A stretch of DNA of 64,000 nucleotides from Linnemannia hyalina. Its lineage: Eukaryota; Mortierellomycota; Mortierellomycetes; Mortierellales; Mortierellaceae. This document shows positions 50,948-55,879 of this stretch, piece after piece (the stretch's first letter is position 1; each line of letters starts with the position of its first letter). A program made the position numbers and the translations under genes. The notes beneath the pieces were generated by a model. It did no database searches. It was not told the origin of the DNA and was given only the letters and a program-made list of their open reading frames with translations. The stretch is taken from contig JAHRHY010000010.1 in the NCBI GenBank assembly GCA_019671135.1, positions 558,001-622,000 on the forward strand. The letters are read 5' to 3'.

Positions 50948-53900
50948 ATGTCATACAATCCAGTCAACACCGATAGCAGAAGCAATAGTCCGGTGCCCTT
51001 TGACCGACACCATGTACCCTATGGACAACAACCACAACAACGCAGGTACGCAACTTTCGACAAATTCACTCTCGCACTCTTTTCAACTTGCGATTTGAGG
51101 TTCGCAGTTGAGGATACAGGGGCGTTAATGGCGAGGAAACAAGGAACAGTATAAGGGGATGAGACAGGAGGAAAGAAAGAAGGAGGTAGAAAGCAGGACC
51201 CTTTCCCTCTTTGCTCGAGGCAAAAAAAAAAAAAAAAAAAAAGGCAATGGGTCTACATCAGATCCGACGCTATCTCAGTCAGACGGGTAGGAACGAAAAG
51301 GAAAAAGGCACGAAAAAAGTAACCTGGGATTCGAGGATGGGATGGGGACGGATCACCTTTTGTGTGTCTCTCTTTTGTGCGTGCTGTGTGCGGTGCATGC
51401 GTGCAGTAGATATATTATTATGGTCATAGACCATGTACTCAAAAGTGAGAGCATAATGACCCGATGATAGGAGATGGAAATGAAAGGAAAAAAAGGGATA
51501 GGTCGTGTATGGGCTATTGTTATTATTATAGTTATTGCATTTTTTCATCCGTCGGATATATGACATGCAGTTGGTATTCAGGAGACTACTGGATGGGATG
51601 GTCCCAGCTCGGGTTATGAGAGTAGTAGAGAGGGACAAGGTGTGACACTTACTTTGTATTTTTAGCATCTCTCAACGACTTTTTTTTGACTAAGAGAGAG
51701 TGAGAGTCACTTTGGTTCTGCCCGGAGTACTGGTTTTGAACTCTGGAACAATGGGAGAGGAAGGAAAAAGGAGGGCGAATATGCTATTATTCTTTTGATG
51801 GTTTAGACAATGGGAATGAGAGAGATATAACCCATTAGTGTTATTAATTGCAGCTATTCTTGTTGCTGTTGTTGTCAACGCATGGTCATGGATGGATGGG
51901 AGATGAGCATCGTTGCGGTCTAATACCAGCCTGGTTCTAGGAGCATGCCCGTTCGCCCCCCTCATTTGTGTTTATTGCCTGTGCGCAATTGAGTGTTTCT
52001 AGATCCCAACGCCTCTTCTTTCTCTCTTCTTCTCTTTGTTGTTTACTCTGTTCTGTACTGTACTGAACAAAACAAACAAACAAGCATTGGGTCCACCCCT
52101 TTCCTCCACAACTTTGAACATAACGACTTCACTTCCTTAACCCTTGGAGTCGTTTCGAAATCATCCCCCTCTCTTTTCGTTTTTTTTACAATAACTTGCT
52201 TCTCTTTACTCCACCTCCACTTCTTGTTACTTTTTTCTCCTCTTTCCTCTTTACGTGCCTCTTCCTCGCTTGTCAATTGGTCCCTGCCTCTCTTTCTCCA
52301 CTCACATTCTTTTCGACCTCTCTCTCCCCACATCCTCACTAACGACCCTCTCCTGCCTCACTTTCCACATCGTCTGAAACAGCTCGTCAGACCACGCCTC
52401 TCCATTGACAAGGCATCAACAACTCATCCAACAGATCCCCTCCAGAGATCCTTTCCAGTCTTCCCTCTACGAATCCTCACCAGCCGGTTCCCCATCCTTC
52501 TCTCGGTCCACCCTCAGGAACCAGCAACAACCATACAACCAAGGACACCAAGGCTATTCCGACATCTCACTCAATAACGATCCCCTCACATCTGAACTTC
52601 GCATACCCGCAGACCCCGCAATGAGAGCACACCACGGACCGGGAGCAGGGGGAGCCATGACACCAAGCTCTGGTAGATCCTTTGACGCCCGTGACAACTC
52701 AAGTTCGAGGTCCTCGGCTCATAACCTGGCCATTGGCACGGATCGTAGCTACAACCTGACACAGACGGATATGACGCTTGAGGGGTTGGCGGAGCGGTGG
52801 AATGCTTACCAAAACTGGTGGGCTAAACAGTACAAGGAGCAACCATTTTATCGCATCTGGACACGGTCAAAATGGATCCTGTTGTTTTCGGCTGTTTTGT
52901 TGCTTGGATACTCTGCAGCTCTCTTTGCCGTCTGTCTTGGCTACATGCTTGGCCGTAAGTTTTTTTTTTTTTTTTTTTTTTTTTTGGGCTTGGATACGAT
53001 GGACATCAATCATGGAGCAGCAAACACCGCATAAACTAACGACGACTTCCTCTCCACAATGAACCCTTGTAGACTTTGAATACTCGACGGTGGTCATGGA
53101 ATTTCACAGCAATCTCATCTACTGTAAGTCCACCACACCATTTGTCTCGGGCTGTGCCATGCACCGAACAAAGACACAAATAAACGTCGCACAAACCAAA
53201 CAAAAAATTAATTCGTGAATCCTCTCCTTACCTTCACCTTCATCCTTTAAAAATAGTGGCATTGGGAGGCTCGATAATAGGAATTCTCACCGCAATCGTG
53301 GGGCTGATCGGGATCTTCAAGGAGAACAGGATATGGCTGTCATGGTACACGATAGTACTCTGGCCAGTCTTTGCAATCTACATCTCGGTCGGGTACATTG
53401 CCTTCCGTCGGGCCAAGAACCATCTCCGTGTACACTTGAAGGATGAGTGGATTCATTCTTATTCGAGAGAGCAGCGTCTTCTTGTCCAGCGCCAGGTAAG
53501 AATATGTTCCCACGTGGACTTGATAACGGATATTTGTGGCGATCAACGGTGACAGAAAGAGCGGGCGCAGGAAGAGGAAGAGGAGAAGCAAGGGGGCTGA
53601 TGGAATCCGCTAATGAAACGAAGCTGTTCCAAATTACCATGTACCTCCAACATAAACCAATTTTTGTTCACACATTCCCTCATGTCCTCTCTCCTCCTTC
53701 CCACTTTCACCAACCTAATAGCTAAAGTGCTGTGGATTCCAGGACTCGCTGACTTATGGAGAATACGACTTGCGCTGCTTCCCCATGATCAACCTCCCAG
53801 GTTGCCTGCACAAGTACAACCTCTACGAGGATAATGTCCTTACAATGGCGTGGACTATTAGTTTCAGCATTGCCCCTGTCCAGCTGTTTGTCATGATTGC

Positions 53901-53979
53901 AGCACTTATGTGCTCTAATCATGTCGATGGCATGCTCCGGTCTGGACGGCCTGGAATTAAGAGCTTCAAGGAGCAGTAG
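50948..53979 (+). CDS. Tetraspanin-like four-helix membrane protein
   Basis: Five exons, 50948-51045, 52383-52954, 53073-53123, 53257-53495 and 53743-53979, give 398 residues. The first ~190 residues are cytosolic and disordered (Gln/Ser/Pro/Asn). Helix 1 is WILLFSAVLLLGYSAALFAV, then a short loop, helices 2 and 3 (GGSIIGILTAIVGLIGIF; WYTIVLWPVFAIYISVGYIAF), a ~60-residue outer loop with two Cys (RCFPMINLPGC), and helix 4 (ISFSIAPVQLFVMIAALMC). This topology and loop sizing match fungal tetraspanins, although the CCG motif is absent. Intron 1 is 1337 bases; the acceptor at 52382 is the one that keeps phase, since an in-frame stop lies just upstream. The function is unproven. Confidence 0.75.
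52960..52985 (+). repeat. 26-base T run directly after a 5' splice site
   Basis: Starts in the GTAAGT donor of intron 2 of the tetraspanin gene. Such uridine tracts just inside introns are bound by TIA-1/Nam8-type splicing factors in other fungi and animals; a role here is inferred. Confidence 0.7.
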
Positions 53980-54400: not shown

Positions 54401-55879
54401 TTAGTTGGGAGTGGCAGAGGGGAAGATCTGCATCTGTCCGTTAGGGTAGACGAGAGCATCGACGTTAATGGGGACGGGGATCGCAGGCGAGTCGGCGCCC
54501 ACAACTATCGCGCCGGCCGGGATACCTCCAACACCGGGGATGGGACCACCAGGATAACCGGGGCCTCTGCGGGAGGAGGGAGGGGGGACCAAGTTGACAG
54601 AGTTTCCGTCCCAGACCAGTCCGACGTTAATTGGGACCGGGATCGCACCAGTGTTGGGATGACCATAATTGCCAGCGGCACCAGGAACTTGGCGTTTGTG
54701 CCACGTCTTCTTGTCGCCCTTACCGTCCATGCCGTAACCGGAATGACCACCCTTTCCGTAACGCGACCAGTCATCCCCACCGTCATAACCGTGTCCAGAT
54801 CCAGAACCAGACCACTTGCTCAAGTTGCCTTCATCAAACTCCTCACGTTTGCTCCACTTCTTCCCACCCTTGCCATAGTGAGACCAAGCGTCACGACCGC
54901 CACTGCCATATCCAGATCCAGCACCAGCTTGAGACCACTTACTCAAGTTACCTTCATCAAGGTCCGAGCGCTTCCAGTTCTTGCCGCCACCAGCTCCAGC
55001 ACTGCCTTGTTCAGCAGGAGTCGTACCAGTACCAGTACCAGTACCAGCTGACCAGGAACGATTACGGGGGTCGGCCGAGTTGGCAGGGTTGGGAGGCTGA
55101 TCAAGGGTATAATAATCCTTGTTGTCGGAGCAATGGATCAGTCCGCGGGTTGTGGTGTCGAGGTTACAGACAAGGGCTGACATGCGGTAGGTAGGAGAAC
55201 CGCCTTGAGGAGCGGTTGCGGCGGCGAAAGTTGAGGCGGCACGCTTTTGGATGGTGTAGGGTTTTCCCAGTTGCTGGTCTCGGCCCTGGCCTTGCTGCTG
55301 GTACCACTGCTGTCCCTGCTGGCCCTGAGAAGGGTACCACTGCTGTCCCTGCTGGCCCTGAGAAGGGTACCATTGCTGTCCCTGCTGACCCTGAGAAGGG
55401 TACCATTGCTGACCTTGCTGGCCTTGAGAAGGAGTCCACTTCTGTTGCGGTGAATCGGCGGCACGCTTCTGAGGCGCACCGTTGGCTTGCTTGGCAGTCA
55501 AAGGAGAAGCGCTCGTTCTAGAGAAACCCGATGACGCAATGGTGGGTGGCACCATCGAGGTAAGAGCCTCGTTCCTGAGGGCTTTGATCAGCTCAGGAGA
55601 TCCGGCGCCAGGTGGTGCTGCGTTGACCGAATTGGTAATGTTGGTGAGCTGAGGGGTGGCGTTGTCGGCCGAGGAGGAAGGGGTGGTGATCTTAGTACCG
55701 GCGATAACCCCGTCGTCGGTGGCGACGGAGATTGCCGATGACGATGGCGGCAAGGAAGGAGAGTCGAGGAGGGTTCCAGAAGGGATGGAGACGGAGTTTG
55801 TCCCGGGAATGGGGAAGGTGCCCATCATGGCCGAGACCAGAAAGAGCGAGAAGGAGATTGTTAACAGGCCACGGGTCAT
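54401..55879 (-). CDS. Secreted Kex2-processed repeat protein (KEP-like precursor)
   Basis: Single exon, 492 residues, starting at the ATG that opens a clear signal peptide (MTRGLLTISFSLFLVSA). A TTG eight codons upstream is not used. Five Lys-Arg sites at residues 138-139, 212-213, 303-304, 344-345 and 395-396, plus Arg-Arg at 437-438, would cut the precursor into peptides. The segment 140-211 holds four copies of an 11-residue Gln/Trp/Tyr unit (SQGQQGQQWYP). Segments 305-343 and 346-394 are related: each has DEGNLSKWS near its start and a WSxYGKGG core, and ends with a Lys/Trp/Lys-Arg cluster. The last segment has two IPVPINV copies. This design matches fungal Kex2-processed repeat proteins such as Ustilago repellent, or pheromone precursors. 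The role is unknown. TATAAAA lies ~150 bases upstream. Confidence 0.82.
   Translation of the reverse strand: MTRGLLTISFSLFLVSAMMGTFPIPGTNSVSIPSGTLLDSPSLPPSSSAISVATDDGVIAGTKITTPSSSADNATPQLTNITNSVNAAPPGAGSPELIKALRNEALTSMVPPTIASSGFSRTSASPLTAKQANGAPQKRAADSPQQKWTPSQGQQGQQWYPSQGQQGQQWYPSQGQQGQQWYPSQGQQGQQWYQQQGQGRDQQLGKPYTIQKRAASTFAAATAPQGGSPTYRMSALVCNLDTTTRGLIHCSDNKDYYTLDQPPNPANSADPRNRSWSAGTGTGTGTTPAEQGSAGAGGGKNWKRSDLDEGNLSKWSQAGAGSGYGSGGRDAWSHYGKGGKKWSKREEFDEGNLSKWSGSGSGHGYDGGDDWSRYGKGGHSGYGMDGKGDKKTWHKRQVPGAAGNYGHPNTGAIPVPINVGLVWDGNSVNLVPPPSSRRGPGYPGGPIPGVGGIPAGAIVVGADSPAIPVPINVDALVYPNGQMQIFPSATPN
55300..55431 (-). repeat. Four tandem 33-bp coding repeats
   Basis: Units at 55300-55332, 55333-55365, 55366-55398 and 55399-55431, each an exact 11-codon unit of the repeat protein. 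The first two are identical; the others differ by a few bases, so recent duplication is likely. Confidence 0.9.

What the first reader, a model, noticed from the sequence alone, without database searches (positions are those of the whole stretch)
54401..55879. Secreted precursor with five Kex2 sites and repeated candidate peptides
Seen: signal peptide, five Lys-Arg sites, a Gln/Trp/Tyr tandem-repeat segment, two related ~40-50-residue segments (DEGNLSKWS ... WSxYGKGG) and two IPVPINV copies. Known: Kex2-processed repeat proteins give repellents, toxins or pheromones in dikarya. Inference: an early-diverging-fungus KEP releasing at least two related peptides and a surface-active Trp/Tyr/Gln peptide.
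Basis: partly seen in the sequence, partly recalled or inferred. Interest (0 to 1): 0.75.

Follow-up and report, generated by a model that had tools for sequence, protein, structure and literature searches.

The report
Kex2-cut secreted peptide precursor, Mortierellaceae
A Mortierella-type fungus gene encodes a secreted, apparently unfolded protein whose conserved cutting sites suggest it is chopped into several different peptides, two of them alike; it resembles a known fungal kind of precursor but belongs to a family of unknown role.

Summary
Window 54401-55879 (minus strand) is one 492-aa frame with a signal-like start, five Lys-Arg (KR) sites (shuffles average 0.74), an 11-aa Gln/Trp/Tyr repeat, two related 41/51-aa segments and two IPVPINV copies. 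Searches gave 14 homologues; the named ones are Mortierellaceae or Mortierella species, with no listed Pfam domain or function. KR-site residues are kept in 100 of 103 aligned cells, other Lys/Arg in 173 of 270, so processing is probably real; the genome has two kexin-type loci.

Published definitions of Kex2-processed repeat proteins need three similar fragments between cut sites; this protein has two. What reaches the most distant homologue is not the repeats but a C-x11-C pair (12 of 12 proteins that reach it) and a C-terminal fragment that starts with Gln after the last KR and carries both IPVPI copies (14 of 14). A peptide module found in 10 of 14 homologues is missing here, probably lost. 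A surface or wall role is my best guess, untested.

The parts
54401..55879 (-). Precursor gene, one open frame, 492 aa plus stop
   Evidence: collinear homologues
55820..55879 (-). Signal-like N terminus, residues 1-20 (cleavage after A17 or G20, by eye)
   Evidence: hydropathy and 93% identity among homologue residues present
55463..55819 (-). Acidic N-terminal segment, residues 21-139, ending in KR1
   Evidence: residues 20-33 are 94% identical in the A2 homologues but not alike in P0016
55463..55468 (-). KR1 (residues 138-139)
   Evidence: kept in 10 of 11 homologues that reach it; QQ in P0016
55241..55462 (-). Gln/Trp/Tyr segment, residues 140-213, ending in KR2
55300..55445 (-). 33-bp tandem repeat array, 4.4 copies
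55241..55246 (-). KR2 (residues 212-213)
   Evidence: kept in 10 of 11 homologues that reach it; GR in P0016
54968..55240 (-). Segment with the Cys pair, residues 214-304, ending in KR3
   Evidence: core 232-273 is 83% identical in A2 homologues
55130..55168 (-). C-x11-C pair, residues 238-250
   Evidence: same spacing in 12 of 12 proteins that reach it, window included
55023..55047 (-). 6-bp repeat (GTACCA x4.2) coding a Gly-Thr run, close to where relatives carry an extra module
54968..54973 (-). KR3 (residues 303-304)
   Evidence: kept in 11 of 13 homologues with letters there; absent in P0010 and P0016
54845..54967 (-). First SKWS segment, residues 305-345, ending in KR4
54845..54850 (-). 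KR4 (residues 344-345)
   Evidence: kept in 7 of 8 A2 homologues with a letter there; 5 others have a gap; AF in P0016
54692..54844 (-). Second SKWS segment, residues 346-396, ending in KR5
54692..54697 (-). KR5 (residues 395-396)
   Evidence: kept, with Gln after it, in 13 of 13 homologues that reach it
54404..54691 (-). C-terminal fragment, residues 397-492, begins with Gln
54587..54646 (-). First IPVPI repeat, residues 412-431, strands in a low-confidence model
54425..54481 (-). Second IPVPI repeat, residues 467-485, strands in low-confidence models

Best explanation
A secreted precursor, so far seen only in Mortierellaceae, that is cut by kexin (Kex2) after each Lys-Arg and probably trimmed by Kex1, giving six products: an acidic N-terminal piece; a Gln/Trp/Tyr low-complexity peptide; a peptide with a 13-residue Cys-to-Cys ring; two related 39- and 49-residue GNLSKWS peptides; and a 96-residue Gln-started C-terminal piece with two IPVPI hairpin-like repeats. 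Shown here: the anatomy, the conservation of the cut sites, kexin-type loci in the genome. Inferred: cleavage itself, the disulphide, Kex1 trimming, possible cyclisation of the N-terminal Gln. My most likely role is local: peptides that stay at the hyphal surface or wall as a loose coat or matrix, with the C-terminal piece and the Cys-ring peptide as core and the middle peptides as replaceable cassettes (this role about 0.35 likely; the confidence below is for the processing claim).
For: KR-site residues kept in 100 of 103 cells of 13 homologues against 173 of 270 for other Lys/Arg beyond the signal. Fisher p about 6e-13; about 1e-8 with P0016 added to the KR side only; cells are not independent. 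Five KR against 0.73 expected. Two P-domain (PF01483) loci 4.7 kb apart on contig C47 (one match holds a TAA, read as an exon end); a catalytic exon from the first matches Kexin 1ot5 at 7e-70 (the second was not compared). Precursor model with mean pLDDT 34.9, in keeping with an unfolded precursor. Module turnover: the tree puts the window and P0003, which lack the module, inside module-bearing proteins (93/90). C-x11-C and KR-Gln reach Entomortierella. Compared repeat copies differ only at third codon positions.
Against: No cleavage product has been seen. KR1-KR4 are not at the aligned places in P0016; KR3 is missing in P0010, whose SKWS-like stretches lie in one uncut 142-aa fragment. KR4 has a gap in 5 of 13 A2 homologues, so the 100 of 103 leaves out absent segments. 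Four homologue models (P0002, P0005, P0009, P0011) start at a Met at the end of the signal; I take this as annotation, untested. The AlphaFold alignment had 14 rows, so low confidence is weak evidence of disorder. Nothing tested bears directly on a surface role, and the genome has a class II hydrophobin.
Confidence: 0.62

Rival explanations
1. A secreted or wall protein in which only the last KR matters: a long, loosely conserved pro-region is removed once to free the Gln-started C-terminal piece; the other KR sites are incidental or minor.
For: KR5 with its Gln is kept in 13 of 13 homologues that reach it, while KR1-KR4 are absent at the aligned places in P0016. The C-terminal piece keeps a narrow length, 91-110 aa in those 13.
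Against: Among A2 homologues with letters at the place, KR1 and KR2 are kept in 10 of 10, KR3 in 11 of 12 and KR4 in 7 of 8, above the rate of other Lys/Arg. Longer homologues carry further KR sites at module borders.
Confidence: 0.2
2. A signalling peptide precursor, such as a pheromone-like KEP.
For: Signal-like start, two related KR-bounded peptides, AA (an XA dipeptide) after KR1 and KR2, and DPPIV-type (STE13-like) matches in the genome (4 matches).
Against: No short near-identical core; SKWS fragments begin SD and EE, without an XA/XP ladder; no SKWS repeat in P0016. The STE2 search was blank but so were its controls, so it says nothing.
Confidence: 0.1
3. A precursor of antimicrobial or host-directed peptides.
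For: Trp- and Lys-bearing ends (GGKKW, DKKTW) of the two SKWS peptides; turnover of middle modules.
Against: Net charges of the two peptides at pH 7 are +0.5 and -2.9, GRAVY -1.18 and -1.59, unlike typical cationic amphipathic peptides (recalled).
Confidence: 0.06
4. A ribosomal cyclic-peptide (dikaritin-type) precursor.
For: KR-bounded, Tyr-containing segments.
Against: No short Tyr core repeated between cut sites. UstYa search blank with blank controls, so inconclusive. Seven nearby frames scanned: 3 of 7 had a match (tetraspanin-like, glycosyltransferase 2, Tsr1/BMS1 type), none a tailoring enzyme.
Confidence: 0.02

Closest known systems
Kex2-processed repeat proteins, KEPs (PMC6339444: passages and section 24; PMC7329392: passages)
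   Same: Secretion signal, several KR sites, related fragments between them; reported also in Mucoromycota.
   Different: Two, not three or more, similar fragments between sites; the other fragments are unlike each other; a conserved Cys pair and a double-repeat C-terminal piece.
Ece1-type heterogeneous precursor (described in a passage of PMC7329392)
   Same: One precursor cut by Kex2 into unlike peptides, only some of them repeated.
   Different: No sequence relation was tested; no toxin role is suggested here.
Ustilago Rep1 repellents (named in passages; details recalled)
   Same: Kex2-cut repetitive secreted protein; a surface role is my guess here.
   Different: No similarity was tested; the window's tandem units are not separated by KR.
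Glomeromycotina AGL and Geosiphon RIC proteins (PMC8786786, passages)
   Same: Secreted disordered proteins of related fungi, discussed as surface proteins; RIC proteins carry KR.
   Different: AGLs have a GPI-anchor signal, none seen here. That paper reports finding none in Mortierellomycotina. Homology was not tested.

Membership tests
KEP (PMC6339444 pipeline) | Signal peptide, no other membrane segment | tested here: inconclusive
   Hydropathy fits; SignalP and TMHMM not available
KEP (PMC6339444 pipeline) | At least four fragments when cut at KR or RR | tested here: met
   Seven fragments, the C-terminal one included
KEP (PMC6339444 pipeline) | At least three similar fragments | tested here: not met
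   Two in the window protein; clusters of three in 3 of 14 homologues (P0004, P0005, P0008), linked in chains, by my shuffle test and not by FIMO
KEP (PMC7329392 definition) | At least three tandem repeats of 8 or more aa between Kex2 sites | tested here: not met
   No dibasic site between the Gln/Trp/Tyr units; SKWS segment twice
Alpha-type pheromone precursor | Short near-identical peptides after KR with XA/XP (STE13) dipeptides | tested here: not met
   Fragments of 41-119 aa; XA only after KR1 and KR2
Alpha-type pheromone precursor | Ste2-type receptor in the genome | tested here: inconclusive
   Blank with blank controls
Dikaritin RiPP precursor | UstYa (DUF3328) genes nearby | tested here: inconclusive
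   Genome search blank with blank controls
Hydrophobin | Eight-cysteine pattern | tested here: not met
   Two Cys; no hydrophobin hit in Pfam
AGL surface proteins | C-terminal GPI-anchor signal | tested here: not met
   No hydrophobic window at the C terminus; no GPI predictor run

The most novel reading that the evidence does not exclude
The precursor defines a new fungal peptide system whose core is not the repeats: a pair of extracellular products kept across Mortierellaceae (a 13-residue Cys-ring peptide and a Gln-started double-hairpin piece), with a fast-changing set of swappable KR-bounded peptide cassettes between them, gained or lost as whole modules.
Probability: 0.25. Interest if true: 0.5.

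Novelty: new variant of a known kind. Interest (0 to 1): 0.36.

Why it matters
Secreted peptides of Mortierellaceae seem little described: a text search for Mortierell- with Kex2 gave 5 papers; of two I saw passages, neither describing this, and of three only the listing. If the cuts are real, the gene gives defined peptides that can be made and tested, and shows how a multi-peptide precursor can lose a whole cassette while keeping two outer elements.

Tried and rejected
A third IPVPI copy at the N terminus (FPIPGTNSVSIPSG) looked plausible by eye and was rejected: 645 of 2000 and 639 of 2000 shuffles score as high against the two C-terminal copies; with P0008's segments 1446 and 1213 of 2000.

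Paralogues in the own genome: no second match with the whole protein (E up to 0.001), the C-terminal piece or the Cys segment (E up to 10); these searches score only the best candidates and gave no profile search.

Known domain or structure: Pfam gave only TFIIA at E 0.42 for the window protein, far below cut-off, and nothing at E up to 0.1 for 9 of 14 homologues. PDB by sequence: best E 0.53, none for the alignment. No fold search was run because both models are of low confidence.

An alpha-factor-like stretch in P0010 (residue 441) was dropped as a single-protein resemblance. The idea that the gene stands in for missing hydrophobins was dropped: a class I search was blank with blank controls, but a class II hydrophobin is present.

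dN/dS and synteny were not done: I had no homologue DNA. Rows left out: P0016 was found later and is not in the counts (its cells are); P0002, P0009, P0013 and P0014 are not in the tree.

Full report
What is there. The minus-strand frame 54401-55879 encodes 492 aa without interruption. It lies tail to tail with what I read as a tetraspanin-like gene on the plus strand, whose last frame ends at 53979; one of its frames matches Tetraspanin at 29.8 bits, just below the cut-off of 32.1, and joining the frames into one gene is inference. The window is contig C2:558001-622000 of a 51.5-Mb assembly, and one match was found there. The nearest homologues are from Mortierella sp. GBA39 and M. hygrophila (87 and 85% identity), so the organism is a Mortierellaceae fungus, probably near Linnemannia. 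Linnemannia, Entomortierella and Haplosporangium gracile are Mortierellaceae in the NCBI taxonomy, which now sets Mortierellomycota apart from Mucoromycota.

Five KR sites stand where composition predicts 0.73; 12 of 20000 shuffles reach five. The 33-bp array scores 227. The two SKWS segments and the two IPVPI segments are far more alike than shuffles. In the repeat copies compared at DNA level the differences (4, 2 and 2 in pairwise counts) fall only on third codon positions, which suggests that the peptides are held by selection; the numbers are small.

Family. Three protein searches gave 14 homologues. I dropped one further row, a bacterial leucine-rich-repeat protein at E 0.02. Twelve of the 14 bear organism names (Mortierella, Linnemannia, Haplosporangium, Entomortierella); P0013 and P0014 bear none. 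The first two searches were capped (7988 and 7990 candidates scored), probably by Gln/Gly-rich words, so the third used the C-terminal piece alone (496 candidates) and found the most distant member, P0016. Absence beyond Mortierellaceae is not shown.

Cut sites. Across the 13 homologues of alignment A2 the KR-site residues are identical in 100 of 103 cells and the other Lys/Arg beyond the signal in 173 of 270. By site, among homologues with letters there: KR1 10 of 10, KR2 10 of 10, KR3 11 of 12, KR4 7 of 8 (five more have a gap), KR5 12 of 12. P0016, outside that count, keeps KR5 alone of the five, though it has other KR sites. The genome holds two P-domain loci close together; a catalytic exon of the first is nearest to Kexin chains in the PDB.

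What reaches furthest. In A2, identity to the window is 0.94 for residues 20-33, 0.93 for the signal, 0.88 and 0.78 for the second and first IPVPI repeats, 0.83 for the Cys core, 0.71 for the Gln/Trp/Tyr segment, 0.71 and 0.66 for the SKWS segments and 0.58 for residues 21-139 as a whole. So the stretch just after the signal is the most conserved among close homologues, but it is not alike in P0016. The C-x11-C spacing is the same in 12 of 12 proteins that reach it and KR-Gln opens the C-terminal piece in 14 of 14, both with the window and with P0016; each of the 14 has two IPVPI-type copies.

Module change. Ten of 14 homologues carry a WFRRPQPY-type motif in a further module; P0002, P0003, P0014 (a fragment) and P0016 do not, nor does the window. 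In a tree of 11 proteins the window and P0003 form one branch (93/90) inside module-bearing proteins. Loss is the simpler reading, but one inner fork is open, three of eight inner branches are starred, P0016 is a long branch, and 49 to 53 of 500 label shuffles do as well.

Structure. With 14 rows AlphaFold gives mean pLDDT 34.9 for the whole and 53.1 for the C-terminal piece, with strands at both IPVPI repeats. This is only suggestive.

Function. Processing is likely; the role is unknown. I favour surface or wall peptides because the pieces are long and rich in Gly, Ser, Gln, Trp and Tyr with low net charge (-2.9 to +0.8), and because disordered secreted proteins of Glomeromycotina are discussed in that way (PMC8786786, passages). 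That is analogy. The genome has a class II hydrophobin, in line with one reported in Mortierella elongata (PMC6784888, passage), so there is no evident gap for this gene to fill.

Comparison. KEPs are defined by at least three similar fragments between cut sites (PMC6339444 section 24; PMC7329392 passage). The window protein has two; three of 14 homologues reach three by my shuffle test. It works like a KEP but should not be filed as one. KEPs in Mucoromycota are in those papers; neither main text contains a word beginning with Mortierell, and their supplementary tables could not be read, so the family may be listed there. No paper was found with six of the homologues' locus tags, nor with Linnemannia, secreted proteins and transcriptom- together. 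Mortierell- with Kex2 gave 5 papers (passages of two seen); Mucoromycota with KEX2 and peptide gave 6 (passages of four seen). A broader search gave 28 papers, of which 20 were listed.

Verdict. A real and well-seen feature: a modest extension of a known kind, with a shared core other than the repeats, and no experimental support.

Noticed in passing
L006 989-1213 minus (match at G000:C13:289594-289785): Class II hydrophobin (PF06766, 96.5 bits) in a Mortierellaceae genome; the open frame has nine Cys, eight in the hydrophobin pattern by eye. A passage of PMC6784888 calls hydrophobins so far known only from Dikarya before its own finds.
   Followed up: partly
L003 and L004 (G000:C47, about 1.4817 and 1.4864 Mb): Two kexin-type loci close together, 4.7 kb apart; only the first was compared with solved structures.
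   Followed up: partly
window 52378-53979 plus: Tetraspanin-like frames (PF00335, just below cut-off) convergent with the precursor gene.
   Followed up: no
homologues P0002, P0005, P0009, P0011: Public gene models start at a Met at the end of the signal, so automatic secretome screens could miss these proteins.
   Followed up: no
homologue P0010, residue 441: A stretch EWYFQLPKPGVPSGQP that faintly recalls alpha-factor (recalled resemblance); seen in one protein only.
   Followed up: no
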